Source of the DNA: Dysgonomonas hofstadii | Lineage (GTDB): Bacteria > Bacteroidota > Bacteroidia > Bacteroidales > Dysgonomonadaceae | Assembly: GCF_014196915.1 (NCBI RefSeq) | Contig: NZ_JACIEP010000001.1 | Span: 124,001-188,000 of the forward strand | Reading direction: 5' to 3' | Length of the DNA stretch: 64,000 bases | In this document: positions 41,378 through 62,892 of the stretch, one piece after another | Layout of the letters: each line of letters starts with the position of its first letter | Position numbering within the stretch: position 1 is the first letter of the stretch | Position numbers and translations under genes: made by a program | Notes under the pieces: generated by a model | The model's database searches: none | Seen by the model: the letters and a program-made list of their open reading frames with translations, nothing else | Told to the model about the DNA's origin: nothing

Positions 41378-41442
41378 CAATATTAAAATATGATAATCGC
41401 ATATTACCGTGGTTTTTTGGTTTTTCTTTGATGTTAAATTGG
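41378..41442 (-). promoter_or_regulatory. Putative HTCS operator and promoter of GH43
   Basis: Read on the minus strand: CCAATTTAAC begins at 41442, the second half-site CCAAAAAACCAC begins at 41420 (22 bp later), and TAATATTG occupies 41385-41378, 57 bp after the first C. Spacing and sequence match the plus-strand copies at 46098, 50526 and 62828. Confidence 0.75.
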
Positions 41443-41559
41443 AATTTCGACATCAGGGTTTGTAGTTAATGTGCTTATTGTTAGATGTATGTCTTTTAAA
41501 ATCTCATTTAACTTCTTTATAACTCTTATCTGGTTCTTTTATTTACCAATAAAGAAAAT

Positions 41560-41567
41560 TATATTTG
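41560..41567 (+). promoter_or_regulatory. -7 element of the pectin HTCS gene
   Basis: TATATTTG at 41560-41567 matches TAnnTTTG and is 26 bp upstream of the start codon. The -33 region is T-rich (TTCTTTT) without a clean TTTG. Confidence 0.5.
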
Positions 41568-41593
41568 TTATATCTTCTTCAGCTATATAAACT

Positions 41594-44500
41594 ATGAAAA
41601 CATACAGTACTATACTTCTTATTCTCCTCTTATTTCCCTTTCCCGTATTCGGGCAACCGAAATCGCATATCGATCATTATAATCTGGAAGAAGGATTACC
41701 TCAACGTTCTATAATGAGTATAATGCAGGATAAAAAGGGATTTATCTGGCTTGCTACATGGGATGGACTATGTAAATTCGATGGTTACAATTTCACCGGT
41801 TATAAAACCACGGTGAACGACTCTGTCATAATGGGGAATAACCGTATCCACCGCATAGTAGAGGATGCGTATGGTTATATATGGCTGAATGCATATAGTC
41901 ATGAAGTCTTTAAATTCGATCCCAAGACAGAAAAATATATAGCTACCTATAATGCAGGAAAAATACCTTTCAAAGCTTCAAAGATAATACCCATGCCTTC
42001 GGGTAAAGTATGGCTTATCTCGGAAACAATGGGAACGATTTGCGTTCCCGACTCAATTAGTCCTCCCATTCAGTTCTCTCTTGAAGAAAAGAACCTGCCG
42101 GATAATAAGGTTAATGCTGTTTTTGAGGATAGCAACAACTTTTCATGGATATTGACGGACAATGGATTGCTAAAGATACCACCATCAGTCAATCCGGAAG
42201 GAGAATATGAGGTCTTTTTCCCTGGTGGGAAAAAATCTGATAAAGTGAAGCCCTTTTTCTCAGCTATGGAGACTGCTTCGGAAATATGGTTCGGGGCAGG
42301 CAATGGTGAAATATGGTGTTATAACAAGAATGATAAAACATTTAATCTGTTCGAAACAGGAGTTGATTCTGATATTATTTCCATAAAAAAGATATATGAG
42401 AAGCTATTCATTATATTAACATCAAAGGATGGATTTTTAGTAAGTGACATAAACCGGACATATTTAAAGAGATTTGATAAATCAAATCTTAAAGAATTAC
42501 CTACCAATGAAATGCTATCCTGTTTTATCGACAGTAACAATAATATATGGCTCGAAACAAATTCGAAAGGCATAGCAAAATTCAATCTGATAGACAATAA
42601 GCTAAAGTATTATTTACCCAATGATTATGGTAACAACCGCATCCTTTTCCCTTCGTTTTTCATTGTCGAAGATAAAATAGGGCATATATGGGTGCATCCG
42701 CATGGCGGTTTTTCTTTTTATGATGAGAAATCGGATAGGCTGGTACCTTTTTATAATAATCCTCATTCACCGGAATGGAAATTCTCGGATATACTTCATC
42801 ACGCCTTTTTAGATAAGCAAGGCAATTTATGGTTAAGCACGCGTAGCGGAGGACTTGAGAAAGTCGTTTTCGATAATTCATTGTTTAAGTTGAACGACTT
42901 CTATTCCAATAAGCTTTCCATTACCGGGCTCGAAGTCAGGGCTATTCTCGAAGATTCCGGTAATAATATATGGCTGGGTAACTTGAATGGTATAATATCG
43001 ATATACGATCCGAAACGTAATCTCAAAGGATATTTATCAAGGAGCGGTTCCATATCAAAATCAGGAGATCTGCTTAAAACGATGGCCTACACTTTTTTGC
43101 AGGATACAAAAGGAAATGTCTGGATTGGAACAAAAGGTGACGGGGTATTTTTATTAAGGCCGAAAGACAGTACCAGAACATCATTTTTTATAGAGCAGTA
43201 TAAACACGATCCTGCCGATATTTTTAGTTTGAGCAACGACATTGTGTACTCGATCCATGAAGACAGGCAGGGGCGGATATGGATAGGTTCGTATGGCGGA
43301 GGCATAAACCTGTTCGACCATCAGAATAAGAAGTTTATCAATGCAAATAATAATTTCAAAAATTATCCTGTCGAGACAGGAGCCCAGATAAGAACAGTAC
43401 AAAGCCATGACGGAAAAATATATATAGGCTCAACACTGGGACTGATTGTCCTTTCTATCGATGACGAGGATAATAGTATATCAAGCTACAAAAGATATTC
43501 GAAAACCTACAAAATTGAGGATGGTATAAGGGCCAATGATATACACAACATACTTGTGACCAAAGAAAACAATATATATATCGCAACATTCGGAGGTGGC
43601 ATGTCTAAAATCACAGAGTGGGATCGCAATGGCTTTCCTTCTAAATTTAAAACGTATGATACCCAAAATGGATTACACTCTGATATCGTATTATCGATAA
43701 CCGAAGATAATAAGAACTGTTTATGGATAAACAGCGAAGGCAGCCTGTCGCGGTTCAATCCCGAAGACGAATCATTTCAACTGTTCAATGATGTCAGCCG
43801 GACAATCAGTAATCAGTATTTTATGGAAACATTGCCCTTGTTGACCAACGACGGAGAGCTAATTTATGGTTGCGCACATGGAACATTATCTTTCTTTCCT
43901 GACAAAATAACACAGAACACTTACTCTCCATATCTGGCTTTGATTAAGTTTAAGGTCTCAAACAACGATTACCCATTAAAGACCAAAATAGACGATGTCA
44001 ACGAAGTTATATTAACTCATAAGGAGAATATATTCAGTCTGGAATTTGCAGCATTGGATTACTCCAATCCCAATGGTATTTCTTATGCATATATGCTTGA
44101 GGGATTTGATACCGAATGGATTAATTGCCAGTCGCAAAGGGTTGCAAACTATACGAATATTCCGCCGGGTGAGTATATTTTCAAAGTGAGGTCGACAAAT
44201 AGTAACGGAACGTGGGTCGGCAATGAGCGCCATCTTTCAATAATAATAACTCCTTCGTTCTGGCAGACAAAATGGGCATACCTGTTGTATATTATTTCTT
44301 TCATTACTGTTCTGTATATTATCCTCAGATCGATATTTATTTTCTACCGTATGAGAGATAAAGTTTTGCTGGAACATGAGCAAACCGAAATGAAGACGCG
44401 TTTCTTTACAGATATATCGCATGAGATCCGTACACCTCTCACTATGATTGTGTCGCCAATAGAAAACATTCTGGATAATCCGAAGACTCACCCCGACATA

Positions 44501-45970
44501 AAACCACAGCTTCAGTTGATATTAAGGAATGCCAGCAGAATGCTCAATATGGTAAACCAGATACTCGATTTCAGGAAGATACAAAAACAAAAGTTACAGG
44601 TAAAAGAAATTTCTGTCGGACAACATATTGACAGTCTATGTAATACATTGTTCAAGATAGCCGAGAATCAGAATATCGAGATAGAATTTAATAATGCGAT
44701 TGGCAATCAAAAGATGTGGGCCGATCCGGACAGTATCGATAAACTGGTTTCAAACCTGATCTCCAATTCTATAAAATATACGGATAAAGGAAGTAAAATA
44801 GAAGTAAACCTTTTCTGGAAAGACAAGGATATCGCCATACAGGTGAAAGACGAGGGACGTGGCATGAGTAAAGAGGTTTTGAATAAACTGTTTACCCGTT
44901 TTGCTTCATACAATAATGATAAAAGCAAACCCAGTACGGGTATCGGATTGTCGATAGTAAAGGAAATTACAGACAAGCATCATGCGAAAATAATAGTTGA
45001 TAGCAATGTAGATGAGGGATCTTGTTTTACATGCTTGTTCCAGACAGGATTGGAGCATTTTTCGAAGGATGAGAATGTGGAGATCATTCACGAAGAAACC
45101 AGTATAAGTGACGAAGTGAAGGTTTCCGGGCAGGTTTATAATGAAAAAATTATACCTTCTGAGGAACACGTGCAGGAGAAAAACCGTTTATCGGTTCTGG
45201 TTGTTGAGGATGACCACGAATTGAGAGGCTTTATTAAATCTGTCTTGTTGGATTACTATGATGTCCATGAAGCACAGGATGGCAAAGAAGGATATGATAA
45301 TACAGTAAAATATATGCCCGATTTTATACTGAGCGACATAATGATGCCTAAAATAGATGGAATGGAGTTCCTCCAGAAAGTAAGGGAAAATCAGGAGACC
45401 AGTCATATACCATTCATCCTGTTAACCGCCAAAACCAATATCGATGACCAATTGGAGGGCATAACATCGGGGGCTAACGATTATATAACAAAACCGTTCA
45501 GTGTTAAGCTGTTGATAGCCAAGATAAATAACATTATTAAGCAGAGGAAGTTATATGCGGCCTATGTGGGAAATGACCATTCCGGCGAAATACAAGGAGA
45601 GGAGCAAAAGCTGGTAGAGCAGAGCAAAATAACAGAACAGGATGAACTGTTTATCCGCAGGCTGAAAGATGATATATATAATAATCTGGACAACAGTGAT
45701 TTCACGATAGATAGTTTGGTGGCCAATACGAATCTGAGCCGCAGAGTCTTTTTTAATAAAGTGAAAAGCCTGACAGGACAGGCTCCGGTAGAGTTTGTCA
45801 GAGAAATAAGAATAAGCCATGCCGCGCAGTTATTGAAAACACAACAGTACAGAATAAAGGAAGTAACCTATATGGTTGGATTTTCCGATATCCGGTATTT
45901 TACACAGTGCTTTAAAGATATGTTCGGGATGACGCCCAGCCAGTATAAAGACCAGTTTAAAGAAAGCTGA
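41594..45970 (+). CDS. Hybrid two-component system regulator (HTCS) of the pectin PUL
   Basis: 1458 aa. Signal peptide (to ~21, VFGQ), periplasmic sensor with repeated propeller blades (GFIWLATWDGL, NIWLGN, VWIGTKGDG, IWIGSYGGG), Y_Y_Y domain (~795-875), one membrane helix (~890-915), HisKA with His943 in FTDISHEIRTP, HATPase (STGIGLSIVKEI), receiver with Asp1248 in LSDIMMP, and an AraC-type DNA-binding domain at the C-terminus (VGFSDIRYFTQCFKDMFGMTPSQYK). It senses pectin-derived oligosaccharides. It sits between the divergent GH43 and the GH28-GH3 genes. The repeated 22-bp-spaced operator found at four promoters of this locus is its likely target. Confidence 0.96.
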   Translation: MKTYSTILLILLLFPFPVFGQPKSHIDHYNLEEGLPQRSIMSIMQDKKGFIWLATWDGLCKFDGYNFTGYKTTVNDSVIMGNNRIHRIVEDAYGYIWLNAYSHEVFKFDPKTEKYIATYNAGKIPFKASKIIPMPSGKVWLISETMGTICVPDSISPPIQFSLEEKNLPDNKVNAVFEDSNNFSWILTDNGLLKIPPSVNPEGEYEVFFPGGKKSDKVKPFFSAMETASEIWFGAGNGEIWCYNKNDKTFNLFETGVDSDIISIKKIYEKLFIILTSKDGFLVSDINRTYLKRFDKSNLKELPTNEMLSCFIDSNNNIWLETNSKGIAKFNLIDNKLKYYLPNDYGNNRILFPSFFIVEDKIGHIWVHPHGGFSFYDEKSDRLVPFYNNPHSPEWKFSDILHHAFLDKQGNLWLSTRSGGLEKVVFDNSLFKLNDFYSNKLSITGLEVRAILEDSGNNIWLGNLNGIISIYDPKRNLKGYLSRSGSISKSGDLLKTMAYTFLQDTKGNVWIGTKGDGVFLLRPKDSTRTSFFIEQYKHDPADIFSLSNDIVYSIHEDRQGRIWIGSYGGGINLFDHQNKKFINANNNFKNYPVETGAQIRTVQSHDGKIYIGSTLGLIVLSIDDEDNSISSYKRYSKTYKIEDGIRANDIHNILVTKENNIYIATFGGGMSKITEWDRNGFPSKFKTYDTQNGLHSDIVLSITEDNKNCLWINSEGSLSRFNPEDESFQLFNDVSRTISNQYFMETLPLLTNDGELIYGCAHGTLSFFPDKITQNTYSPYLALIKFKVSNNDYPLKTKIDDVNEVILTHKENIFSLEFAALDYSNPNGISYAYMLEGFDTEWINCQSQRVANYTNIPPGEYIFKVRSTNSNGTWVGNERHLSIIITPSFWQTKWAYLLYIISFITVLYIILRSIFIFYRMRDKVLLEHEQTEMKTRFFTDISHEIRTPLTMIVSPIENILDNPKTHPDIKPQLQLILRNASRMLNMVNQILDFRKIQKQKLQVKEISVGQHIDSLCNTLFKIAENQNIEIEFNNAIGNQKMWADPDSIDKLVSNLISNSIKYTDKGSKIEVNLFWKDKDIAIQVKDEGRGMSKEVLNKLFTRFASYNNDKSKPSTGIGLSIVKEITDKHHAKIIVDSNVDEGSCFTCLFQTGLEHFSKDENVEIIHEETSISDEVKVSGQVYNEKIIPSEEHVQEKNRLSVLVVEDDHELRGFIKSVLLDYYDVHEAQDGKEGYDNTVKYMPDFILSDIMMPKIDGMEFLQKVRENQETSHIPFILLTAKTNIDDQLEGITSGANDYITKPFSVKLLIAKINNIIKQRKLYAAYVGNDHSGEIQGEEQKLVEQSKITEQDELFIRRLKDDIYNNLDNSDFTIDSLVANTNLSRRVFFNKVKSLTGQAPVEFVREIRISHAAQLLKTQQYRIKEVTYMVGFSDIRYFTQCFKDMFGMTPSQYKDQFKES

Positions 45971-45999
45971 TGTATTAATAATATACTGTAGTGTAAAAA

Positions 46000-46048
46000 C
46001 ATTGTGCTCTTTGTGGTTGGCCGTTTTCTTACCACAAAGAGCACAATG
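46000..46048. terminator. Very strong hairpin after the HTCS gene
   Basis: An 18-bp perfect stem: CATTGTGCTCTTTGTGGT (46000-46017) with its complement at 46031-46048, 13-nt loop. It lies 29 bp after the HTCS stop. No T tract follows; it may be a Rho-independent-like terminator or a REP-like element that isolates the HTCS transcript from GH28. Confidence 0.75.
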
Positions 46049-46097
46049 ATAAATAAGAAGATTATGTGTTGATAATCAGTGTCCTTCCATGATGATG

Positions 46098-46162
46098 CCA
46101 ATTTGACTACAAATAAATGCCAAAAAAACAACACAGGTATTTATGCCGATAGTATAATATTG
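46098..46162 (+). promoter_or_regulatory. Putative HTCS operator and promoter of GH28
   Basis: CCAATTTGAC at 46098, CCAAAAAAACAAC at 46120 (22 bp later), and -7-like TAATATTG at 46155-46162, exactly 57 bp after the first C. Start codon is 43 bp after the -7 element. Confidence 0.75.
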
Positions 46163-46205: not shown

Positions 46206-47804
46206 ATGGCAACTGTATTAAAGAAAAACACTCACAATCTATTCTGCGTAATGATATTATTGACAATAAGCATTCAGTCTCTTAATTGCACAAATAGAAA
46301 TTCAGATAACAAATACAATCATTTATATAAAGATCTCCCTTTTGAAATGCAGATACTTGAAAAGCCTTCCTTCCCTGATAATAAAGTATATATTACAGAA
46401 TATGGAGGAGTTTCCGACGGAAAGACCTTAAATACCGCTGCATTTGAAAGTGCGATGCAAAGCTTGTCGAAAAAGGGTGGCGGCACATTAATTGTCCCTT
46501 CCGGTATCTGGTTTACCGGGCCAATTGTCTTCCGGTCGAATATAAATTTACATCTGGAAAAAGGAGCATTGATATTGTTTTCTCCCGATTTCGATCTTTA
46601 TCCTCTTGTAAAAACGGTTTATGAAGGGAGTGAAACCCGGCGGTGTCAGTCACCGGTTTCAGCAAAGGATATTGAGAATATTGCTATAACCGGAGAGGGG
46701 GTGATAAATGGTTCGGGAGACGCATGGCGTCCATTAAAAAAAATGAAAGTTACGGAAAGTCATTGGAAGGCTGTTGTAAGATCCGGCGGCGTATTAAAGG
46801 ATCAGAATATGTGGTTTCCGTCAGAAAAGGCGCTGAAAGGAGATGGCATGGATAAGGCATCCTTAACAGAAGAAGAATGGCTGTCGATAAAAGATTTTTT
46901 GCGTCCGGTGATGGTTAGCTTTATCAATTGTAAAAACATTCTGCTGGAAGGAGTCCTTTTCGAAAACTCGCCCAGTTGGAACATACATCCTTTAATGTGC
47001 GAAAACCTGATTATGGATAATGTGAATGTAAGAAATCCTTCCTATGCGCAGAATGGCGACGGAGTAGACATCGAATCATGCAAAGATGTGATCGTTGTAA
47101 ACTGTTCTTTCGATGTGGGCGATGACGCCATATGTATAAAATCGGGAAAAGATGAAGAAGGCCGTAAGCGTGGACGTCCTACCGAAAATGTAATAATCGA
47201 AAATTGCAGGGTATTCAAAGGACATGGGGGATTTGTTGTCGGCAGTGAAATGTCCGGTGGAGTAAAAAACATATCCGTCTCGAATTGCCAGTTTATGGGA
47301 ACGAACATCGGATTGCGTTTCAAAAGTGCGCGTGGCCGGGGTGGGGTAGTAGAAAATATCTATGTAAAGAATATTAATATGTTCGACATCATATACGAAC
47401 CGCTATCTTTCGACTTGTATTACTTTACCAAAAGAAAAGAAGATGAGATACCTCTTGTCAATGAGACTACGCCTGTATTCAGAAACATTTATATAGACGG
47501 CATTATTTCACGGAACTCAAATAAAGCAATGCTTTTTAACGGCCTTCCCGAAATGAATATTTCCAATATCAATATAGAAAACACAGTTATCACCGCCAAG
47601 CTGGGTGCCGAACTTTCCGATGCTGATAAAGTCAGTTTCAGGAATGTAGAGATTTACCCTGAAACGGGCCCTGCTTTAATTTTAAACAATGTAAAGAATA
47701 TGAATGTAGAAGGATTTAAGCATCCTGATAAAATAGAACGGACAGTAATGATAAACGGAGACAGGTCTGACAACATAAACATACCTGGATATCTGTCGAA
47801 ATAA
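46206..47804 (+). CDS. GH28 polygalacturonase-type glycosidase, lipoprotein
   Basis: 532 aa, likely lipoprotein (Cys28, SLNC). Inverting hydrolase of alpha-1,4-galacturonan or rhamnogalacturonan on a right-handed parallel beta-helix. N-terminal YGGVSDGKTLNTAAFESAM and GGGTLIVPSGIWFTGPI are typical of bacterial GH28. Catalytic Asp residues: Asp285 in NGDGVD, Asp306-Asp307 in GDDAICIKSG, with His340 in GHGG and a RFK segment further on. Some GH28 members are exo-acting; there is an extra ~50-residue insertion around 180-225 that could shape such a pocket. The first gene after the HTCS, with its own operator; GH3 follows by 26 bp. Confidence 0.95.
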   Translation: MATVLKKNTHNLFCVMILLTISIQSLNCTNRNSDNKYNHLYKDLPFEMQILEKPSFPDNKVYITEYGGVSDGKTLNTAAFESAMQSLSKKGGGTLIVPSGIWFTGPIVFRSNINLHLEKGALILFSPDFDLYPLVKTVYEGSETRRCQSPVSAKDIENIAITGEGVINGSGDAWRPLKKMKVTESHWKAVVRSGGVLKDQNMWFPSEKALKGDGMDKASLTEEEWLSIKDFLRPVMVSFINCKNILLEGVLFENSPSWNIHPLMCENLIMDNVNVRNPSYAQNGDGVDIESCKDVIVVNCSFDVGDDAICIKSGKDEEGRKRGRPTENVIIENCRVFKGHGGFVVGSEMSGGVKNISVSNCQFMGTNIGLRFKSARGRGGVVENIYVKNINMFDIIYEPLSFDLYYFTKRKEDEIPLVNETTPVFRNIYIDGIISRNSNKAMLFNGLPEMNISNINIENTVITAKLGAELSDADKVSFRNVEIYPETGPALILNNVKNMNVEGFKHPDKIERTVMINGDRSDNINIPGYLSK

Positions 47805-47830
47805 CCATATAAATAAAGAAATACCAAACC

Positions 47831-50434
47831 ATGAAAAAAATAGCGATAACGACTCTGATTCTTTTAATTTCCTCTGTTGCATGTATAAATTCTATTGCGC
47901 AGGAAGCTTATAAGAATCAGCAATTAAGCTTCGATGAGCGTGTGGAGGATTTACTGAGTCGGTTGACATTAGAAGAAAAAGTGCTTTTGATGCAGGATGC
48001 GTCGAGGCCGATAGAAAGGTTGGGCATCAAACCGTATAACTGGTGGAACGAAGCTCTGCACGGTGTCGCCCGTGCCGGACTGGCTACGGTTTTTCCTCAG
48101 CCGATAGGTATGGCTGCGACATTTGATGACAAAGCAGTTCTGGAAGTATTCGACGCCGTGTCGGACGAAGGACGGGCCAAACATAATTATTTTTCATCAC
48201 AAGGTGATTTCGGAAGGTATCAGGGTTTAACGATGTGGACTCCTACTATAAATATTTTCCGTGATCCACGATGGGGAAGAGGTATCGAAACTTATGGAGA
48301 AGATCCATATCTGACCAGTCTGATGGGAATTGCCGCTGTCAGAGGACTTCAGGGGGTGTCCGGTGAAAAGTATGATAAGCTACATGCGTGCGCCAAGCAT
48401 TTTGCAGTACACTCAGGGCCAGAATGGAACAGGCATTCTTTCAATGCAAAAAATATCAATCCGCGCGATTTGTGGGAAACATATCTTCCCGCTTTCGAAG
48501 CATTGGTAAAGGAAGCCGGAGTAAAAGAAGTGATGTGTGCTTACAACCGCTTCGAAGACGAACCTTGTTGTGGAAGCAACAGATTGCTAAATCGGATATT
48601 GCGTGAAAAATGGGGTTTCTCTGGGATTGTAGTGGCAGATTGTGGTGCTATTCGCGATTTTTACGGGGAAAATGCTCATGGCACCCACCCCGATGCGGCA
48701 ACAGCTTCGGCCGCAGCTGTGCTGAGCGGGACAGATCTCGATTGCGGATCAAGTTACAAGGCATTGGTAGAGAGTGCAAGGAAAGGATATATAAAAGAAG
48801 AAGATATAGATGTTTCTGTAAGGAGGTTACTTAAAGCCCGTTTTCAGTTAGGAGAAATGGATAGGAATGAAGATGTTTCATGGTCTAAGATTCCATATTC
48901 GGTAGTGGCTTCTGAGAAGCATGACGCAATTGCATTGGATATAGCCAGAAAGTCGATGACACTTCTCCTCAACAAAAATGGTGTTCTACCATTGAAGCAG
49001 GGAGGATTGACAGTCGCCGTGATGGGGCCGAACGCAAATGATTCGGTAATGCAGTGGGGAAATTACAATGGGACTCCGGCCCGGACAATTACAATATTAG
49101 AAGGCATACGTGCTGCTTTAGGGGTAAATGATAAACTGATATACGAACAGGGGTGTGCTTTAGTCGAAAACACATTGATGGAAAGTGCATTCAATCAATG
49201 CCGCTCGGAAAATGGGCAGGGCTTTAGTGCAAAATACTGGAATAATATGGACAGGAGCGGACAACCCGATGTTACAACACAAATATCCACTCCTTTCAAT
49301 TTCTGTACATTAGGAGCTACAGTGTTTGCATCAGGGGTTAACCTGACTGACTTCTCAGCCTCTTACAATACGACATTTACTCCCGAAAAATCAGGAGAAG
49401 TTGTTTTTGACTTTTATGTGAATGGTACTGTCAATTTATTGATAGATAAAAAAGAAGTAAAAGGTACCCGGGCAAATCACGGAAGCCGTAAGATGGGACA
49501 TTCCATGAAGGTGGAGGCCGGAAAGCCATACGATATACAGATAGATTTTGATTATAACAGAGGTGACGCCCAGTTGAATTTCGATTTTGGTTATAAGGAA
49601 GAAATAAATATTGATAAGTCTGTGGCAAAAGTAAAAGATGCCGGGGTAGTGATCTTTGTCGGGGGTATTTCTCCTTTACTGGAAGGGGAAGAAATGGGAG
49701 TGAATTTACCCGGATTTAAAAAAGGTGATCGCACAGATATCGAATTGCCTGCCATACAACGTGAGTTTATCAGAGCATTGCATGAAGCAGGTAAAAAAGT
49801 AGTCTTCGTTAATTGCTCGGGTTCTCCTATCGGTATGGAGCCGGAAATAGAAAATTGCGAAGCTATTCTGCAGGCATGGTATCCGGGACAATCGGGAGGT
49901 AAAGCCGTAGCGGATGTCCTTTTTGGTAATTATAATCCGGCAGGGCGTTTGCCAGTTACATTCTATCGTAATGTTGATCAGCTCCCCGATTTTGAAAATT
50001 ATGACATGAAAGGACGTACTTACCGCTATATGGCTGAGACTCCACTTTTCCCATTCGGATATGGTTTAAGCTATACAAGCTTTCAGTATGGTAAACCCGC
50101 ATTAAATAAAAATAAGGTAAAAGCCGGTGAAAAAGTAAAACTGACTATCCCTGTAACAAACAAGGGGAAAATCGACGGAGAGGAAGTAGTGCAGGTTTAT
50201 CTGAGAAAGAAAAATGACATATCCGGCCCTATTAAAACATTGCGTGCCTTTGAACGTGTTTTCATCCCTTCGGGAAAAACCAAAACTGTGGTTTTTGAAC
50301 TTACCGGCAAACAATTTGAGTGGTGGAATGAAAATAATCAGGCAGTAGAAATATCAGCAGGAGATTTCGATATTTTAGTAGGAGGTAGTTCCGGAGATGA
50401 AGATCTTGTTAAGATGAATGTAAAACTGCAATAA
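47831..50434 (+). CDS. GH3 beta-glycosidase with PA14 insertion (beta-xylosidase/beta-glucosidase)
   Basis: 867 aa. Signal sequence ends near 18-23 (SSVAC or SIAQ). GH3 N-terminal TIM barrel (~30-330) with WWNEALHGVAR, KHFAVHSGPE and nucleophile Asp270 in VVADCGAI; C-terminal alpha/beta sandwich split by a PA14-like beta-barrel (~460-600, GFSAKYWNN ... FDFYVNGTVNLLIDKKEV), and a C-terminal fibronectin-III-like domain. The WWNEALHG form is common in GH3 beta-xylosidases. Inserted PA14 domains shape substrate recognition. With GH43 and GH28, removal of xylose from xylogalacturonan or of another beta-linked side chain is plausible. Cotranscribed with GH28. Confidence 0.94.
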   Translation: MKKIAITTLILLISSVACINSIAQEAYKNQQLSFDERVEDLLSRLTLEEKVLLMQDASRPIERLGIKPYNWWNEALHGVARAGLATVFPQPIGMAATFDDKAVLEVFDAVSDEGRAKHNYFSSQGDFGRYQGLTMWTPTINIFRDPRWGRGIETYGEDPYLTSLMGIAAVRGLQGVSGEKYDKLHACAKHFAVHSGPEWNRHSFNAKNINPRDLWETYLPAFEALVKEAGVKEVMCAYNRFEDEPCCGSNRLLNRILREKWGFSGIVVADCGAIRDFYGENAHGTHPDAATASAAAVLSGTDLDCGSSYKALVESARKGYIKEEDIDVSVRRLLKARFQLGEMDRNEDVSWSKIPYSVVASEKHDAIALDIARKSMTLLLNKNGVLPLKQGGLTVAVMGPNANDSVMQWGNYNGTPARTITILEGIRAALGVNDKLIYEQGCALVENTLMESAFNQCRSENGQGFSAKYWNNMDRSGQPDVTTQISTPFNFCTLGATVFASGVNLTDFSASYNTTFTPEKSGEVVFDFYVNGTVNLLIDKKEVKGTRANHGSRKMGHSMKVEAGKPYDIQIDFDYNRGDAQLNFDFGYKEEINIDKSVAKVKDAGVVIFVGGISPLLEGEEMGVNLPGFKKGDRTDIELPAIQREFIRALHEAGKKVVFVNCSGSPIGMEPEIENCEAILQAWYPGQSGGKAVADVLFGNYNPAGRLPVTFYRNVDQLPDFENYDMKGRTYRYMAETPLFPFGYGLSYTSFQYGKPALNKNKVKAGEKVKLTIPVTNKGKIDGEEVVQVYLRKKNDISGPIKTLRAFERVFIPSGKTKTVVFELTGKQFEWWNENNQAVEISAGDFDILVGGSSGDEDLVKMNVKLQ

Positions 50435-50756
50435 AAAGAATGATGTCTGTTAGGTATAAATAGGGGGTGATGGGCAATTTATTTATTGTTAAATGTTTAC
50501 ATATTTATGGCTGAGATTATTTCTTCCAATTTACCCCCTGAAAAATGCCGAAAAACCACTATATGAATTTGTGAATAACCTTTAATATTGCATAACAGAT
50601 ATTATAGAAATTAACCTGAATCGATAAAAATGAAACACAATGAATGCACTGAACAAACTCCATTATTGAACAAATCACATTTATTCTTCGGTAAGAAGTA
50701 TTGAGTAAAAACGAAAAAAAAAAAATAACTAACCCTAAATTAAAAGCTAATGCATT
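50435..50756 (+). other. Intergenic region with operator/promoter and leader
   Basis: 322 bp between GH3 and the next lipoprotein gene. Apart from the operator/promoter at 50526-50590 it contains an AT-rich leader of about 160 nt with an A12 tract near 50715 and ACCCTAAA just before the start. No gene or strong terminator seen. Confidence 0.6.
50526..50590 (+). promoter_or_regulatory. Putative HTCS operator and promoter of the lipoprotein-PL1-SusCD operon
   Basis: CCAATTTACC at 50526, CCGAAAAACCAC at 50548 (22 bp later), and TAATATTG at 50583-50590, exactly 57 bp after the first C. It would drive the run from 50757 to 62729. Confidence 0.75.
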
Positions 50757-51635
50757 ATGAAACATTTAATTAGTTTATTGTTTCTGTCAGCCTTGATTCT
50801 AATATCTTCCTGCTCTGGTCAGGATGATAATGAATGGGATTATAACGGGCAACAGGATACTCAACCAACTAAAAAATCGATGAGTATAGGCTTTAGTCAA
50901 GCCAGTCTCTTAACATTTGCGGAGAATAACATCACCGAATTGGGAATTTATGTGTACCTGAATGATTCATTGGTATATGGGAAAAATCTTCCTGTAAATA
51001 ATGGAGAATTGCAGATAGAGGTACCTCTGGGCGAAAATCTCAAAACTTTTGCTGTGGCCAATGCAGGAGAGGTTCTCGATGCAGATAGCCTTACGAAAGT
51101 TGCCGTGTATCAGGATGAGAATTGCCAGAAAGAAATCTTTATGTCGGAAATCAAATCTTTTGTATCGGATAAATCGGTTAATGAAGTAACATTGGAACTG
51201 AAACGAATGGTAGGACAGGCTCTTTTGCAACCGACTGAAACTTCGGCGGAACTTTCAGCCATAACAGCCTTCGATGCATTGGATGTGGTATTCAATAACG
51301 TGGTTATCGGATATAAGCCGGGCACAGGAGAGTATATTACAGGCAATGCGACAGTAAATACCAGGCTGGCGGATGGGTATAAAGCATCGGTATATTCTTA
51401 TCCTTCGCCCGCTGATATTCTTGGAAATATAGAGGTTATTTATTTGAAAGAGAATAATGAAGTAACCCGCACTTTGCGTCCGTTGGATGTATCTCTCGCT
51501 TATGTAGCATCGAAGCGTATTGTGGTTAACATGCCGATTCTGGATAGCGATTATCTGGAAAATCCTCTTCCAACCACACGTTTGAAGAGTGTGAATACCT
51601 CTCGTGGAATAAGTGTTCAGGAATATCAATTTTAA
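50757..51635 (+). CDS. Surface lipoprotein of the pectin PUL (family not firmly recognised)
   Basis: 292 aa, lipoprotein (Cys19, ISSC) with an acidic Asp/Asn-rich linker after the Cys. The middle part (GIYVYLNDSLVYGKNLP, LQIEVPLGENLKTFAVANAGEV) looks like the beta-sandwich of FimB/Mfa2-type fimbrial accessory proteins, a fold also used by PUL surface proteins. No catalytic motif. It is first in a transcript with a beta-helix lipoprotein, PL1 and SusCD and is preceded by the shared operator, so a surface pectin-binding role is likely but inferred. Confidence 0.75.
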   Translation: MKHLISLLFLSALILISSCSGQDDNEWDYNGQQDTQPTKKSMSIGFSQASLLTFAENNITELGIYVYLNDSLVYGKNLPVNNGELQIEVPLGENLKTFAVANAGEVLDADSLTKVAVYQDENCQKEIFMSEIKSFVSDKSVNEVTLELKRMVGQALLQPTETSAELSAITAFDALDVVFNNVVIGYKPGTGEYITGNATVNTRLADGYKASVYSYPSPADILGNIEVIYLKENNEVTRTLRPLDVSLAYVASKRIVVNMPILDSDYLENPLPTTRLKSVNTSRGISVQEYQF

Positions 51636-51650
51636 CTTTTATTGAATCTT

Positions 51651-53468: not shown

Positions 53469-53531
53469 CAGCTATTCATTTACGAAGGATGGGGAATAGA
53501 ATATCCTCATCCTTATAAAAACCGAATAAAA

Positions 53532-55877: not shown

Positions 55878-55930
55878 GAAATACGTATAAGTTTTATTCT
55901 ATAAAATAATCTTAAATCATAAGCTAATAT

Positions 55931-58900
55931 ATGACAATGAATAGATTTATAATAAGCTTTTTTGCAATGCTGCTCTTTTCAATAGCCTCTTTTGCACAAA
56001 TTACCGTAACTGGTACAGTAACAGATAGCTATGGGCCGTTGCAGGGTGCAACTGTTTCCTTGCAGGGGACTACAGTGGGGAGTATGGCCGATGAGAAGGG
56101 GAACTTTTCAATTAAAGTACCCAATGCACAAACGGCAGTGTTATTATTCCGGTTTATAGGGATGAACGAGATTGTAGAGCCCTTGCATGGGCGTACATCG
56201 GGAATCAACGTTAAAATGATCGAACAGGCCAACCAGATGGAAGATATCGTTGTGGTAGGTTATGGAACTCAAAAAAGGGTAAATATTACCGGTTCGGTAG
56301 CGTCTGTGTCGGGCGATGTTCTGGTTAAGACTCCCGCAAATTCTGTTGCTGAGGCCATGGTAGGGAAATTGCCGGGCGTTCAGATCACATCAGTAGATGG
56401 TTCGCCTGACGCTGATATAATGATCCGGGTTCGCGGCGGCGGGTCTATAACTCAGGATAATTCGCCTTTAATTCTGGTGGATGGTTTTGAAGTTGCTAAC
56501 TTGAATGATATTCCGCCCAGCGATATCGAATCTATCGATGTTCTTAAAGATGCTTCCACAAAATCTATCTATGGAGCACGTGGAGCCAATGGGGTTATAC
56601 TTGTTACTACCAAGCAGCCTACAGAAGGAAGGGTGACTGTAAATGTAAATTCTTACTGGCAGATAAAAACACTGGCAAACAGGCTTGATGTTATGGATCC
56701 GTACGAATTCGTTCTGATGCAGTATGAATATGAGCGGCAGCGTTCTTCAAATCCAACCGGATTTTATAATAAATACGGTCAGGCATACGAACTTTACAAG
56801 TATCAGGGCATAGAAGGCGTTGACTGGCAGGATGAGATCTTCGGATCGAATCCGGTCGCACGGTTTACTGATATAAATATAAACGGAGGAACTCAAAGGA
56901 CGAAATATAAATTATCCCTGGCAAATCAGGATCAGCCGGGAGTATTGGTTGGTAGCGGACTAAAGCAAACCAATATAAATTTTACCCTGAACACTAAACT
57001 CACCGACCGTCTGACATTGGAATACCGAACTCGTTTTACAAACAAAGCTGTGGATGGAGACGGTACAGACGGAGTTAATTTGCTGGATGCCCTTCGTACA
57101 GCACCTACCGAAGGACTCGACGATTTTATGACCCTGCCCGAGGATAACTCCTATTTTGATCCTGATGAATATACTCAGGTGACCAGAATGAATCCGAAAG
57201 AAAAAGCGGAGAATAATTACCGGAAACGTATCAGGAGGACATTCAATACGAGCGCGGCATTGACATGGAATGTATGGGATAAACTATCTTTCAGAACAGA
57301 GTTTGTTTATAATTATGGCTTCAACGAGAATAAGCGGTTCTGGGGTAAGGATGAAAAAACAGCACTCGACAATAAAGGGTTGCCTGTTATCCGCTGGGAA
57401 TCGGGAAACAGTAGAGGATGGCAGTTTACCAACAGGCTGAATTATGACTTCAAGGTGGATATGCATAGTTTCGACCTGATGGTCGGACAAGAGATAAATC
57501 AGAGTGAAAGTAAAAATAAATCATTCTCGGTACGGTATTTCCCGGATGATATTACTGCTTCCAAGGCATTTGACAATATCAGTCTGGGTAAAGTATACAA
57601 TGGTACTTCCACAGCAGGATCTCCGGAAAAATTATCTTCTTTCTTTGGCCGTCTCTTCTATGGCTACAATGACAGGTACCTGGCTACATTTACGATGCGT
57701 GCCGACGGTTCTTCAAAGTTTGCTAAAGGCAACCAGTGGGGAATATTCCCGGCAGGATCTCTTGCCTGGCGCATCTCACAGGAAGAATTTATGGCCAATG
57801 TTAAGGCCGTGTCCAATCTGAAGTTGCGTCTGGATTATGGTATATCGGGAAATAACCGCATCGAAAGTGACCTTTTTGCAAAATATTATACAGTAAACGG
57901 AAACAACCGTCCGGTGGGCTGGGGTGATAGCGACGAGGAGAATCATTATTTTTATAGTTCTTACCATAAAACTTTATATAACCCCGATCTGAAATGGGAA
58001 ACAACTATTGGGCGGGGTATTGGTGTCGATTTCGGATTTTTCAGGGAGAAAATAAACGGTACAATCGATGTTTATTGGAATACGGTGAAAGACCTTCTTG
58101 TTCCTTCAGAGATACCCGGACATTCGGGATATACAAGCATGATGAAGAATATCGGACAGACCTCCAACAAAGGTATAGACTTAGCCCTGAATGCATGGGT
58201 AGTGGAAACCAAAGACTTCACTCTGAATCTTAACTTTAATATAGGTTATAACAAAAATAAGATTGACAAACTGGCCGATGGTGAGCAGGAATGGATTCTT
58301 TCATCGGGATGGGCGGGTACCCAGTTATTGAATACTGACGACTACAGAGCATACGTAGGTGGCAGAAGAGGGCTTATATACGGCTTTGTCAACGATGGTT
58401 TCTATACAATGGACGATTTCGAGTCTTTCGATTCAGGTACCCGTACATGGACACTGAAAGACGGGGTTGCCAATTCAAAAAATCTGTCGGGTGATCCCCG
58501 TCCCGGAAATGCCAAGTTCAAGAAACTTACGCCGGTAGATCCGAATGATCCGAATACTTACGTAATCGGGGATAACGACCGTCAGGTAATAGGTGATACA
58601 AATCCTGATTTTTCAGGTGGTTTCGGACTAAACGCGACATACAAAGGTTTCGACCTGACATTGTTCTTCAACTATATGTACGGATTCGATGTGTACAATG
58701 CCAATAAGATCATGATGACATCATGGTACCAGAATACCAGTAACAACCTGAGTATGGATGTCTCGATGAACAACCGCTGGCGGAATTTCGATAATATGGG
58801 GAATGAGATCCGTTATAATCCTGAAGCACTTGCTAAGTTCAATGAGAATGCGACCATGTGGAACCCGACTTCCATAGGCCGGCCGATAGCTATGTCTTAT

Positions 58901-59152
58901 GCGATTGAGGATGGTTCGTTCCTTCGCCTGAATACAGCTTCGATAGGATACACTCTTCCTGCCGCTCTTACACGCAAAGCAGGAGTGACCCGTGCCCGGA
59001 TTTATGCAACTGGATATAACTTGTTTACAATCACAAGCTATTCTGGATATGATCCGGAAGTAAATATCGAAACGGGGTTAACTCCGAATATCGATAACAA
59101 TGCTTATCCGAGAAGCCGTTCCTATACTTTTGGAGTGCAACTTACATTTTAA
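55931..59152 (+). CDS. SusC-like TonB-dependent transporter of the pectin PUL
   Basis: 1073 aa; start at 55931 or two codons later. Signal peptide to ~23 (SFAQ), carboxypeptidase-regulatory-like domain (~25-100), linker with IVVVGYGTQKRVNITGS, plug with VRGGGSITQDNSPLILVDGF and SIYGARGANGVILVTTK, barrel ending VQLTF. Imports oligogalacturonides generated by PL1 and GH28. The susD start is 23 bp downstream. Confidence 0.97.
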   Translation: MTMNRFIISFFAMLLFSIASFAQITVTGTVTDSYGPLQGATVSLQGTTVGSMADEKGNFSIKVPNAQTAVLLFRFIGMNEIVEPLHGRTSGINVKMIEQANQMEDIVVVGYGTQKRVNITGSVASVSGDVLVKTPANSVAEAMVGKLPGVQITSVDGSPDADIMIRVRGGGSITQDNSPLILVDGFEVANLNDIPPSDIESIDVLKDASTKSIYGARGANGVILVTTKQPTEGRVTVNVNSYWQIKTLANRLDVMDPYEFVLMQYEYERQRSSNPTGFYNKYGQAYELYKYQGIEGVDWQDEIFGSNPVARFTDININGGTQRTKYKLSLANQDQPGVLVGSGLKQTNINFTLNTKLTDRLTLEYRTRFTNKAVDGDGTDGVNLLDALRTAPTEGLDDFMTLPEDNSYFDPDEYTQVTRMNPKEKAENNYRKRIRRTFNTSAALTWNVWDKLSFRTEFVYNYGFNENKRFWGKDEKTALDNKGLPVIRWESGNSRGWQFTNRLNYDFKVDMHSFDLMVGQEINQSESKNKSFSVRYFPDDITASKAFDNISLGKVYNGTSTAGSPEKLSSFFGRLFYGYNDRYLATFTMRADGSSKFAKGNQWGIFPAGSLAWRISQEEFMANVKAVSNLKLRLDYGISGNNRIESDLFAKYYTVNGNNRPVGWGDSDEENHYFYSSYHKTLYNPDLKWETTIGRGIGVDFGFFREKINGTIDVYWNTVKDLLVPSEIPGHSGYTSMMKNIGQTSNKGIDLALNAWVVETKDFTLNLNFNIGYNKNKIDKLADGEQEWILSSGWAGTQLLNTDDYRAYVGGRRGLIYGFVNDGFYTMDDFESFDSGTRTWTLKDGVANSKNLSGDPRPGNAKFKKLTPVDPNDPNTYVIGDNDRQVIGDTNPDFSGGFGLNATYKGFDLTLFFNYMYGFDVYNANKIMMTSWYQNTSNNLSMDVSMNNRWRNFDNMGNEIRYNPEALAKFNENATMWNPTSIGRPIAMSYAIEDGSFLRLNTASIGYTLPAALTRKAGVTRARIYATGYNLFTITSYSGYDPEVNIETGLTPNIDNNAYPRSRSYTFGVQLTF

Positions 59153-59175
59153 TTAATGACTAAAACGAAATAACA

Positions 59176-61071
59176 ATGAATAAAAAATCATTATATGCCA
59201 TTTTTGCAAGCCTGATCATTTTATTCTCCTCGTGTGACGATTATCTGGAAGTTACACCTCCGACAGGATTCACCGGTGAATATATATTTTCCTCCGAAGC
59301 TGAAATTAAGGCGGCAATAACAGGTGTTTATTCCATAATGCTGAATGACGATGCATACGGGAACAGACTGGCCTATGTGTATAATCCGAATACTGATGTG
59401 GAAATGTCAGGTATTACCACAAGTGCAGTAAGTGTAAACGGGGGAGACTTTGCCTGTTACGAACCTAAGCCGTACTGGACTACGCTGAACGGAACATGGA
59501 ATACTATGTATTCGATTATTAACCAGGCAAATGATATAATCGAAGGAATCGAAACCAGCGATTTGTATACACAGGCGGATAAGACGAAAACCTCGGAAAT
59601 TACCCAGCTGTATGGCGAGGTGAAAACCTTGCGGGCAATGTTGTATCTCGATCTTATCCGTATATGGGGAGATGTCGTATTCCGTACAAAACCCTCAACC
59701 TCAGATGAGAACTTTTTTGTCGGAGTTACCGACCGTAACGAAATTCTGGAATATCTTATCGGTGATCTGAAATCTGTAGAACCGGCCATGTCTTATGCTG
59801 CCGATCTAGATTATGGAGTAGAAAGGGCATCCCGTGAATTCTGCCAGGGATTGATAGGATTGCTGGCGATGAACCGTGGAGGATGGATGTTAAGACCAGA
59901 TACCAGTGATCCTGCCGGCATTGGATATATGGAACGCGGAGAGAATCATGAACACTATTATGATATTGCTATTGAATATCTTGGAAAGGTGATTGATGAA
60001 GGAAAGCATGACCTGAATATGAGTTTCGAAGAACTGTGGTATGAGCAGTGTAACTGGAATACTCCATCAAATGACGATATATTGTTTTCGATTCCTCTGA
60101 TGAAAAATTCATCCGGCCAGTTTGGTTATTATATCGGAGTTCCGATAACGGCCGGAACTCATCCTTACGGAAGCGCTTCGGGTAACCTTAACTTATCTGG
60201 AATCTATTTGTACTCGTTCGATAAAGACGACCTGCGTCGCGATGTTACCTGTGCTCCTTATCGTTACAGTGATAAACTGAATCAGGAAATTCGTCTCGAT
60301 ATTGCTACACTGCCTACCGGCAAATGGTCGAAACTAAAGATGAACACTCCGTTAGGAGCTACCAGTACAGCCGGCACAGGGATCAATTTCACATGGATGC
60401 GTTTTGCCGATGTACTTTTACTGTATGCCGAAGCAGTCAATGAGCGTTTCGGGCCTCGCGATGATGCGAAAGATTGTTTGAAACGGGTAAGGAACAGGGC
60501 CTTTGATCCGTCTGTACAGGGCGAAAAGGTAGAAGCTTATGTAGATCGTTTAGGTACAAAGGACGATTTCTTCAAGGCCCTAATGAACGAACGTAAATGG
60601 GAATTCGGCGGCGAAGGCATCCGTAAGTTTGATTTGGCACGTTGGAATAAATTCAGTGAAGTGATTTATAATCTTTACCATGATCTGATCACATGGGGAA
60701 AAGTAGCTAATGGGGCACACGACCCTGTTATTACAGAAGTAGCCGAAAGCGTTTATTATAAATCAGTGACAGATCCGCAGAATCCTGACAGGACGATTCT
60801 GGATATTGTAGGCATTGATGAATTTGTTCACGCCCGCCCTTCAGGTTATACCGAACATGAATTTGCGAAAAAATGGTATGCGCTTGATAACCAGACAGAA
60901 AGTTATGAGCCAATTACGACGATACGCTGGAGTTTCAGGGGCTTTATTAATTACAATAATGCATCTGTGGTTAAACCGACAGACCCATTGAGATATTTAT
61001 GCCCCTATCCAACTAAAGTGATAACTGACCATCGGGGGAAGATACAGAATTATTATGGTTTCAATTATTAA
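59176..61071 (+). CDS. SusD/RagB-like glycan-binding lipoprotein of the pectin PUL
   Basis: 631 aa, lipoprotein Cys20 (LFSSC). SusD features: N-terminal SSEAEIKAAITGVYS, helical repeat region with EVKTLRAMLYLDLIRIWGDV, and C-terminal FADVLLLYAEAVNERFGP, NERKWEFGGEGIRKFDLARWN. Partner of the SusC encoded upstream. Confidence 0.96.
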   Translation: MNKKSLYAIFASLIILFSSCDDYLEVTPPTGFTGEYIFSSEAEIKAAITGVYSIMLNDDAYGNRLAYVYNPNTDVEMSGITTSAVSVNGGDFACYEPKPYWTTLNGTWNTMYSIINQANDIIEGIETSDLYTQADKTKTSEITQLYGEVKTLRAMLYLDLIRIWGDVVFRTKPSTSDENFFVGVTDRNEILEYLIGDLKSVEPAMSYAADLDYGVERASREFCQGLIGLLAMNRGGWMLRPDTSDPAGIGYMERGENHEHYYDIAIEYLGKVIDEGKHDLNMSFEELWYEQCNWNTPSNDDILFSIPLMKNSSGQFGYYIGVPITAGTHPYGSASGNLNLSGIYLYSFDKDDLRRDVTCAPYRYSDKLNQEIRLDIATLPTGKWSKLKMNTPLGATSTAGTGINFTWMRFADVLLLYAEAVNERFGPRDDAKDCLKRVRNRAFDPSVQGEKVEAYVDRLGTKDDFFKALMNERKWEFGGEGIRKFDLARWNKFSEVIYNLYHDLITWGKVANGAHDPVITEVAESVYYKSVTDPQNPDRTILDIVGIDEFVHARPSGYTEHEFAKKWYALDNQTESYEPITTIRWSFRGFINYNNASVVKPTDPLRYLCPYPTKVITDHRGKIQNYYGFNY

Positions 61072-61094
61072 GACGAATATAAAAAGAGACGAAA

Positions 61095-62729
61095 ATGAAA
61101 CAAATAAATATATTACTTACGATACTATATGTATGTTTTTCGGGTTTGTTTTTCAGTGCCTGCGAAGATGACAAATACCGTGAAGAACTGGATTTGTTCC
61201 AACCGAGATTCGTTTTAGATGAACCTAAAGTTGAAGGGAACTCGATAGCCTTGGTCTGGTACAAAGTGAACGATGCTACATCCTATACTGTTGAATTGCA
61301 TCTGGATAATTTTTACAACAGTCTGTTTGCGGCATACAATACAACAGATCCTCAACTGTTTATTGATGATATACCTTATGCTACCCGCTATTATATTCGC
61401 CTAAAATCGGTAGCTTCGGATAGTCTTCATAATTCGCATTGGACTTATACCAATGCTCTCACAGAGTCTCGTCCTGCTTTTGCCAATCTTTTAGAGAGAG
61501 TTGCCAAAGCTGACATTATGGAAACAAGTGTGACTATACGGTGGCAAATCGATCCTGAAAATCCGGTAGACAGTATTGGTGTAGTACCTGCTATGGGAGC
61601 AGATACAATACCAAGTGTCACCCGCTTCCTTACTTCAGAGGAAATCGGTCAGGGTTATGCCGAAATAGACGGATTGGAGAGAAATACACTCTATAATGTT
61701 AATATATACGATACAAGTAAACCCCGTAAATACGACAAACCTTATAATACGGTTAACTTCCGTACGGCCGGGCCGTCTGCCGAAACTATAATTATCAGCC
61801 GTGATGACGATTTGTCGGCGATATTGTCAGCGGCAAACAATAACACTGATGTTCCTGAAGGGACTGAATATTACCTTCCTGCCGGCTCATACTTTAAAGT
61901 ATCACCATTTACTATCAAAAAAGGATTTAAACTGACCGGAAGTACAGATGGCGAGAGAGTGCAGATAGAACTTACTGGTAGCTGGAATACCGAATCGGAT
62001 GTATATATCTCAAGTCTGGAATTTGAAAATATCGAATTTTTCCAGACTATCGATGCCGGATACTTCTTTAACAGTGGTAATGCATGGAATATGGAGCAGG
62101 TCATATTCTTTAATTGTACATTCAAACATTTCAAACGTGGATTCTGGCGTCATCAGGGAAGTGATAAGCTGAAACGTATCGGACGTCTCGAAATGGAAAA
62201 TTGTATGCTCGACGAGTGTGGTGGCCACACAGGACCTTATGGTACATTCTCTATTAATTCAGGTGGTGCGGATAATATCGAAAATGCAATATTCACAAAT
62301 TGTACATTTATGAGAGACCACTATCAGACTGACGATGTGACCCGTAATATGCGGCATCTGTTCGATTACGGTTCCTCGGCTTATCCTATCAATCTGGAAT
62401 ACAGGAATATTACGATTTACGATTATGCATATAATCAGCGGCTGATCAATATTGCAGCAGCAGAGAATTCTACTCTTGTATTTGAAAAAGTATTGGTTGC
62501 AGCTGCCTGTGGAAACATATATTCCTTAGCAGCAAAAACAACGACCAGCTTTGCTGACAATTATGTCACCGCCGATTATCTGGTAGGCCCCGCTTCTATA
62601 AATGCGACAGAGTTGGGCATAAGTGCCAATAACTTGTTTGTTAATCCTACAGCTGGCGATCTTACAATAAAAGATGCTAATTCGCCTATCGTGACCAACC
62701 GCGTAGGTGACACGCGCTGGTTACCATAA
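61095..62729 (+). CDS. Lipoprotein with fibronectin-like N-terminus and beta-helix (DUF4957/DUF5123-like)
   Basis: 544 aa, lipoprotein Cys23 (FFSAC). Two fibronectin-III-like domains (~40-225; note IALVWYKVNDATSYTVELH and YIRLKSVA), followed by a parallel beta-helix region (~230-540) with Asn ladders (ENCMLDECGGHTGPYG, IENAIFTNCTFMRDH) and the ending GDLTIKDANSPIVTNRVGDTRWL shared with the protein at 51651. It is 24 bp after susD and precedes the strong palindromic terminator. Probably a surface glycan-binding protein specific to the pectin locus; no catalytic residues identified. Confidence 0.82.
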   Translation: MKQINILLTILYVCFSGLFFSACEDDKYREELDLFQPRFVLDEPKVEGNSIALVWYKVNDATSYTVELHLDNFYNSLFAAYNTTDPQLFIDDIPYATRYYIRLKSVASDSLHNSHWTYTNALTESRPAFANLLERVAKADIMETSVTIRWQIDPENPVDSIGVVPAMGADTIPSVTRFLTSEEIGQGYAEIDGLERNTLYNVNIYDTSKPRKYDKPYNTVNFRTAGPSAETIIISRDDDLSAILSAANNNTDVPEGTEYYLPAGSYFKVSPFTIKKGFKLTGSTDGERVQIELTGSWNTESDVYISSLEFENIEFFQTIDAGYFFNSGNAWNMEQVIFFNCTFKHFKRGFWRHQGSDKLKRIGRLEMENCMLDECGGHTGPYGTFSINSGGADNIENAIFTNCTFMRDHYQTDDVTRNMRHLFDYGSSAYPINLEYRNITIYDYAYNQRLINIAAAENSTLVFEKVLVAAACGNIYSLAAKTTTSFADNYVTADYLVGPASINATELGISANNLFVNPTAGDLTIKDANSPIVTNRVGDTRWLP

Positions 62730-62774
62730 AAAGCGAGCATAGTTTTTTAGAGTACATTTTATAATTTAGTTTTG

Positions 62775-62806
62775 AGGCCGGTTCTTATGATCATAAGAAC
62801 CGGCCT
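62775..62806. terminator. Perfect 32-bp palindrome, likely bidirectional-looking terminator
   Basis: AGGCCGGTTCTTATGA (62775-62790) is followed immediately by its exact reverse complement (62791-62806). A third AACCGGC copy lies at ~62816-62822. Follows the 61095 gene by 46 bp and ends before the CE8 operator. Confidence 0.85.
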
Positions 62807-62827
62807 TGTATTTAGAACCGGCTAATT

Positions 62828-62892
62828 CCAATTTATCCCCTAATAAATACCAAAATACCACTGTTCGGATATCTGATTTTATGATTACTTTG
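62828..62892 (+). promoter_or_regulatory. Putative HTCS operator and promoter of CE8
   Basis: CCAATTTATC at 62828, CCAAAATACCAC at 62850 (22 bp later), and -7-like TTACTTTG at 62885-62892, exactly 57 bp after the first C. The start codon is 28 bp after the -7 element. Confidence 0.75.

What the first reader, a model, noticed from the sequence alone, without database searches (positions are those of the whole stretch)
41378..62892. Four copies of a two-half-site operator, each exactly 57 bp from a -7 element, define the pectin HTCS regulon
CCAATTT plus CCRAAAWAMCA half-sites spaced 22 bp occur at 41442 (minus strand), 46098, 50526 and 62828. In all four, the -7-like octamer (TAATATTG three times, TTACTTTG once) begins 57 bp after the first C. 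These precede GH43, GH28, the 50757 operon and CE8. Direct repeats two helical turns apart suit a dimeric AraC-type output domain of the HTCS at 41594. The rigid spacing and lack of -33 TTTG suggest class-II-like activation.
Basis: seen in the sequence. Interest (0 to 1): 0.8.

Follow-up and report, generated by a model that had tools for sequence, protein, structure and literature searches.

The report
Pectin sensor operators at fixed promoter distance
Four pectin-degradation promoters carry the same two-part switch sequence at a fixed distance from the polymerase contact site, very probably where the neighbouring pectin-sensing regulator docks; it is a clear new example of a known kind of switch, and relatives keep nearly the same spacing.

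Summary
CCAATTT-N15-CCRAAAWAMCA occurs four times without mismatch in the 5.04-Mb genome, only at these promoters. The -7 octamer begins 57 bp after the first C in 4 of 4; 100 shuffles of the window gave none.

A half-site model trained only on the window was run on promoters divergent from related HTCSs, with spacing left free. The best repeat has a 22-bp period in 18 of 27, and a -7 octamer lies 34-35 bp after the start of half-site 2 in 18 of 27. The window has 35.

Best explanation: a tandem operator for the AraC-type output domain of the HTCS at 41594. Half-site 2 sits about where a -33 element would lie, so activation is class-II-like.

HTCS operators as 21-bp direct repeats were predicted in 2013 (Ravcheev), and binding by a rhamnogalacturonan-locus HTCS was shown in 2024 (Gao). 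This is a new member of a known kind. The addition is the conserved promoter geometry. Binding and transcription starts are untested, and a 50%-identical paralogue may read overlapping sites.

The parts
41430..41442 (-). half-site 1 of the GH43 operator, CCAATTTAACATC
41408..41420 (-). half-site 2 of the GH43 operator, CCAAAAAACCACG
41378..41385 (-). -7 octamer TAATATTG, 324 bp from the GH43 ATG
46098..46110 (+). half-site 1 of the GH28 operator, CCAATTTGACTAC
46120..46132 (+). half-site 2 of the GH28 operator, CCAAAAAAACAAC
   Evidence: 1 difference of 35 operator and octamer positions against 39 of 200 other intergenic positions versus G007
46155..46162 (+). -7 octamer TAATATTG
50526..50538 (+). 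half-site 1 of the 50757-operon operator, CCAATTTACCCCC
50548..50560 (+). half-site 2 of the 50757-operon operator, CCGAAAAACCACT
50583..50590 (+). -7 octamer TAATATTG
62828..62840 (+). half-site 1 of the CE8 operator, CCAATTTATCCCC
62850..62862 (+). half-site 2 of the CE8 operator, CCAAAATACCACT
62885..62892 (+). -7 octamer TTACTTTG
41594..45970 (+). hybrid two-component system P0001: Reg_prop sensor, Y_Y_Y, HisKA, HATPase, receiver, AraC-type HTH; carries the SHIP motif in the receiver
   Evidence: Pfam; sequence; S/CHIP motif described in PMC11253607 section 7
39433..41061 (-). GH43 (NCBIfam: weak arabinanase similarity, below cut-off)
46206..47804 (+). GH28 (polygalacturonase family)
47831..50434 (+). 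GH3, 27 bp after GH28, probably same transcript
   Evidence: co-transcription inferred
50757..62729 (+). gene run: unknown 292 aa, DUF5123, BACON protein with weak PelZ similarity, SusC, SusD, DUF5123
62921..63886 (+). CE8 pectinesterase

Best explanation
The four sites are the operators of the pectin HTCS encoded at 41594 (P0001). On sensing a pectin oligosaccharide, the protein phosphorylates its own receiver domain, which frees the AraC-type DNA-binding domain. Two such domains bind head to tail, one per half-site, on the same DNA face two helical turns apart (22 bp). Each 13-bp half-site has two conserved blocks (YCAATTT-like, then C-N2-C or CMC), as expected if each AraC domain places two helix-turn-helices in successive grooves. 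Half-site 2 starts 35 bp before the -7 octamer; if the octamer lies at about -11 to -4, it covers about -46 to -34. It thus abuts or replaces the missing -33 contact, and the bound protein recruits RNA polymerase in a class-II-like way. Shown here: sites, spacing, uniqueness, conservation with the HTCS clade. Inferred: binding, phosphorylation control, polymerase contact, ligand.
For: Four perfect sites in the genome, all at this locus. The motif is conserved while the octamer-proximal spacer is not (motif 23-29 of 35 identical between site pairs, spacer 7-11 of 22), so these are not recent promoter duplications. In the 101-genome family scan (up to 3 mismatches) 8 genomes hit: own, near-relative G007 and six others. 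Of the six, G015 precedes a GH28, G382 a SusC divergent from an HTCS, G253 an unassigned fragment and SusC divergent from an HTCS, G324 a pectate lyase and G351 an acetyl-xylan-esterase-family protein; G337 looks like chance. Hits occur in 7 of 43 genomes with a clade HTCS and 1 of 58 without (Fisher p 0.01; without own and G007, 5 of 41 against 1 of 58, p 0.043). G007 was added to the 43 by hand because its HTCS is truncated by a contig end (95% identical tail). P0001's closest relative (G382, 54%, support 100/100) has the operator in its divergent SusC promoter with the octamer at +57. With spacing free, a half-site model from the window gives a 22-bp period in 18 of 27 clade promoters and an octamer at 34-35 bp in 18 of 27; both together in 13. 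Other HTCS-linked promoters of the genus carry different sequences but the same period (21 bp: 24 strand-merged clusters, 2-9 at the 14 other lags), which points to the HTCS and not to sigma.
Against: No binding, footprint or start-site data. G015 has a P0001-like operator before GH28 but only a P0002-type HTCS, so paralogues may share sites. In the scored clade set 5 of 29 promoters did not beat the best of 20 shuffles, including the genome's own P0002 promoter L048. In P0002-type promoters of the genus, the 8 sites found in 12 regions have the octamer equivalent at +56 in 7 and +57 in 1, and half-site 2 reads differently. The operator-HTCS association is modest (p 0.043 without own and G007). 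In the 279 promoter regions the 22-bp lag alone is not above the highest control after merging strands (8 clusters; lag 25 has 9). No site lies before the HTCS gene on its own strand.
Confidence: 0.82

Rival explanations
1. The operators are read mainly, or also, by the paralogous pectin HTCS P0002 (G000:C2:533120), so the four promoters belong to a shared regulon of two sensors.
For: Full length 50% and DNA-binding tail 60% identical. G015 has a P0001-like operator at GH28 but only a P0002-type HTCS. Ravcheev 2013 proposed shared sites for the paralogue pairs BT4111/BT4124 and BT4178/BT4182.
Against: P0002's own promoter has a different half-site 2 (TATTTT-type) and octamer equivalent at +56. 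No match within 4 mismatches with the octamer was found in L053-L055 around P0002.
Confidence: 0.25
2. The conserved block is an extended promoter element read by a sigma factor, not an activator site.
For: Fixed distance to the -7 octamer, and no -33 TTTG.
Against: Other HTCS-linked promoters keep the direct-repeat period and zone but use other sequences. The element follows the HTCS clade. Four sites per genome is too few for a housekeeping element.
Confidence: 0.05
3. Copies of one promoter spread by recent duplication, without selection for the repeat.
For: Four sites in one locus.
Against: Spacer between half-site 2 and octamer 7-11 of 22 identical, motif 23-29 of 35. Against G007 the GH28 intergenic region differs at 1 of 35 motif positions and 39 of 200 others, p 0.008; the second comparable region is nearly identical throughout (0 of 35, 1 of 287) and says nothing. 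Recurs in other genera.
Confidence: 0.03

Closest known systems
HTCS operators predicted in Bacteroides thetaiotaomicron, in particular HTCS_Rgu-1 (BT4111/BT4124) and HTCS_Rgu-2 (Ravcheev et al. 2013, PMC3878776; abstract, sections 7-8 and search passages seen)
   Same: Direct repeat of two sites, mean distance 21 bp, upstream of pectin or rhamnogalacturonan PUL operons next to the HTCS; dimer binding on one DNA face two turns apart already proposed there. HTCS_Rgu-1: 12-bp sites with a 9-bp spacer.
   Different: Other organism and sequence (motif logos are in figures and a supplement not held, so letters could not be compared). Period 22 bp here. The parts I saw state no distance to the -7 element.
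BT4124 receiver-DBD binding the bt4114 promoter (Gao et al. 2024, PMC11253607; abstract, sections 7 and 10 and search passages seen)
   Same: HTCS of a rhamnogalacturonan-induced locus, SusCD promoter, phosphorylation-dependent DNA binding; S/CHIP motif, which P0001 also has.
   Different: Binding shown there, not here; no half-site or spacing mapped in the passages seen.
AraC at araI1-araI2 of pBAD, and XylS at Pm (recalled, from no call)
   Same: Tandem direct half-sites about 21 bp apart with the proximal one next to or overlapping the -35 region.
   Different: Soluble one-component regulators with sigma-70 promoters, not membrane HTCS with sigma-ABfr-type promoters.
PDB 12aw_A, hybrid two-component system protein, receiver plus DBD
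   Same: Best solved match to P0001 residues 1198-1456 (E 2.5e-69).
   Different: The entry's paper and any DNA content were not seen.

Membership tests
HTCS-controlled PUL operator (as described by Ravcheev 2013) | HTCS with receiver and AraC-type HTH encoded in the locus | tested here: met
   Pfam
HTCS-controlled PUL operator (as described by Ravcheev 2013) | direct repeat of two sites about 21 bp apart | tested here: met
   22 bp in 4 of 4
HTCS-controlled PUL operator (as described by Ravcheev 2013) | upstream of co-localised SusC/SusD and degradation genes | tested here: met
HTCS-controlled PUL operator (as described by Ravcheev 2013) | conserved at loci of related HTCSs in other species | tested here: met
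   24 of 29 clade promoters beat their shuffles
HTCS-controlled PUL operator (as described by Ravcheev 2013) | bound by the HTCS output domain; induction by the glycan | not testable with these tools
   needs EMSA or footprint, and reporter
sigma-ABfr-type promoter (TAnnTTTG at -7, TTTG at -33) | -7 octamer | tested here: met
   5 of 6 fixed letters in 4 of 4
sigma-ABfr-type promoter (TAnnTTTG at -7, TTTG at -33) | -33 TTTG | tested here: not met
   no TTTG at a suitable distance in 4 of 4
class-II AraC-type activation (araI1-I2, XylS-Pm; recalled) | proximal half-site next to or overlapping the -33/-35 region | tested here: inconclusive
   half-site 2 spans 35 to 23 bp before the octamer; transcription start not mapped

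The most novel reading that the evidence does not exclude
HTCS promoters in this family follow one geometric code: two 12-14-bp direct half-sites with a 21-22-bp period, the proximal one 25-48 bp before the -7 octamer in place of a -33 element, the sequence changing with the HTCS while the geometry stays. Operators, and so regulons, of unstudied HTCSs could then be read from promoter DNA alone.
Probability: 0.5. Interest if true: 0.6.

Novelty: new member of a known kind. Interest (0 to 1): 0.45.

Why it matters
It gives a precise, testable operator for a pectin-sensing HTCS with a promoter-distance rule kept across seven genera of one family. If that rule extends to other HTCSs, as the genus-wide 21-bp signal suggests, the regulons of hundreds of unassigned glycan sensors become predictable from sequence. 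The duplicated P0001/P0002 pair, with a shared half-site 1 and divergent half-site 2, is a natural case for studying how paralogous sensors separate their targets.

Tried and rejected
Rejected: L024 (C1:551367, 3 mismatches) looked operator-like but has no octamer at +57 and lies in front of a 181-aa reading frame beside an rRNA-methyltransferase-like gene by my reading. L005 lies at the 3' end of a coding frame. The order-level hit G100 lies partly in a long reading frame and shows no pectin gene. G337 lies beside rubrerythrin-like and ABC-protein-like frames by my reading.

The first octamer check read minus-strand hits on the wrong strand; one search repeats it correctly. The first search for P0002 sites used a wrong pattern and found 1; one search mends it.

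A first scan of HTCS-linked promoters of the own genome was dominated by one exact 21-bp repeat and simple repeats. In the own genome alone the profile is not decisive: lag 25 is as high as lag 21 in one bin, 0.37 each. In the 60 further loci, counts count divergent regions twice and include AG runs at lag 22; one search merges strands and drops the simple repeats (lag 21: 24 clusters; lag 22: 8; 13 other lags 2-9). The Poisson values were made on the unmerged clusters and are not used.

The combined score limited the octamer to 56-58, so it is not evidence for the distance; one search left it free. One search used 27 of 29 promoters (L215 too short, L219 identical to L217). The 29 are of 47 clade matches; P0001 itself, L218 and 16 matches without a locus were left out.
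Full report
CHECK. The composite pattern gives 4 of 4 perfect hits in the window and none in 100 dinucleotide shuffles. In the whole genome the half-site pair gives only these four perfect hits; hits with 2-3 mismatches are no more frequent than the reversed-pattern control (57 against 57 in total), and none of the 26 such hits fetched has a 5-of-6 octamer at +57.

ANATOMY. Aligning the four sites with six sites from other genomes shows that half-site 1 runs on to a C at +9 and C/T at +12, and that half-site 2 has a C at +31, exactly 22 bp later. The whole is a 13-bp direct repeat with a 9-bp gap, followed by a 22-bp variable stretch and the octamer. Position +9 and its 22-bp partner are invariant in 10 of 10. 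Two conserved blocks per half-site fit the two helix-turn-helices of an AraC domain (inference). No -33 TTTG is present. Published -7/-33 promoters: PMC7366714, section 8 and passages seen.

GENES. GH43, HTCS, GH28, GH3, a SusC/SusD run with DUF5123 proteins and a weakly PelZ-like BACON protein, and CE8 indicate pectin, probably homogalacturonan with side chains. The substrate is inferred.

CONSERVATION. In 25 genomes of the genus only the near-relative G007 keeps P0001 (95% identical tail). Its two sites on the contig held are conserved; the GH28 region differs at 1 of 35 motif and 39 of 200 other positions. All other genus relatives found have at most the P0002-type paralogue. In a tree of 18 HTCSs, P0001 groups with the HTCS of G382, another genus, with support 100/100. 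In 101 genomes of the family, 8 have the composite pattern with up to 3 mismatches; of the eight places outside the own genome, G337 looks like chance and the other seven lie before GH28, pectate lyase, acetyl-xylan-esterase-family, SusC or (G253) an unassigned fragment followed by a SusC-like gene, or are the two G007 orthologues. In 295 genomes drawn over the order only the own genome, G253 and one chance-looking hit (G100) match, so the exact operator is a family-level trait.

Clade promoters: the window-trained score beats the best of 20 shuffles in 24 of 29 divergent promoters. With period and octamer distance free, 22 bp is best in 18 of 27 (21 in 2, 23 in 3, other in 4) and an octamer lies at 34-35 bp in 18 of 27; both hold in 13, over seven genera (g1, g18, g19, g184, g187, g190, g192). 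Typical: ACAATTTGTCACC-CCTTAAAAA-CCAATTTATCACC, a near-perfect repeat, so the window's form with a diverged half-site 2 is probably derived (inference). P0002-type promoters of the genus read TCAATTTNTCCCC and TATTTTAACACC with the octamer equivalent at +56 in 7 of 8 sites.

GENERALITY. Sixty HTCS loci of other genus members gave 279 promoter regions. Repeats of at least 11 of 14 letters occur at lag 21 in 38 regions (24 clusters with strands merged) and at lag 22 in 18 (8 clusters); the 13 other lags from 15 to 29 give 2-9 clusters. Lag 21 stands out; lag 22 alone does not. Around 177 perfect TAnnTTTG octamers, identity at lags 21-22 in the zone 25-48 bp upstream exceeds control lags by 0.060 (bootstrap 95% interval 0.045-0.076). 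The register varies among regulons, so the zone, not one exact distance, is general. Loci were chosen by HTCS similarity, and relatedness between genomes is only partly removed.

LITERATURE. Ravcheev 2013 (abstract, sections 7-8, passages) predicted 16 HTCS motifs, all direct repeats with mean distance 21 bp, and proposed dimer binding two turns apart. Gao 2024 (abstract, sections 7 and 10, passages) showed phosphorylation-dependent binding by BT4124 and BT4663. I found no statement of a fixed distance from an HTCS operator to the -7 element in searches; figures, supplements and most subscription papers were not available, so this is weak evidence of absence. Passages of PMC10994844 and PMC12596196 and PMC12125979 bore little on it.

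VERDICT. A real, well-conserved operator set of a pectin HTCS; a new member of a known kind, with a promoter geometry worth testing.

Noticed in passing
window 41182-41209 (-), leader of GH43: A dispersed repeat (TGTCATGCTGGAGCGAAGCGAAGCATCT) lies between the GH43 octamer and its ATG; 22 places in the genome with up to 3 mismatches against 0 for the reversed control. It may explain the long leader.
   Followed up: partly
window 41594-45970 and G382:C43: P0001 is nearly absent from its genus (only G007 of the 24 others searched), and its closest relative is in another genus: lateral gain or repeated loss.
   Followed up: partly
L062:983 (G015:C4): P0001-like operator with octamer at +57 before a GH28 in a genome with only a P0002-type HTCS, which suggests overlapping specificity.
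   Followed up: partly
window 29850-39265: Cluster of a secreted DNA/RNA non-specific endonuclease, an endonuclease/exonuclease/phosphatase, a TonB-dependent receptor and DUF5689: looks like a nucleic-acid scavenging locus.
   Followed up: no
window 8481-27896: A second HTCS locus with polysaccharide lyase 8, a GH88-like protein, GH2, SusC, SusD and GH16; no matching operator found in the regions looked at.
   Followed up: partly
L120, upstream of 13911 (-): Exact 12-letter direct repeat AGAAATGTTGCA with a 21-bp period at another HTCS of the same genome.
   Followed up: no
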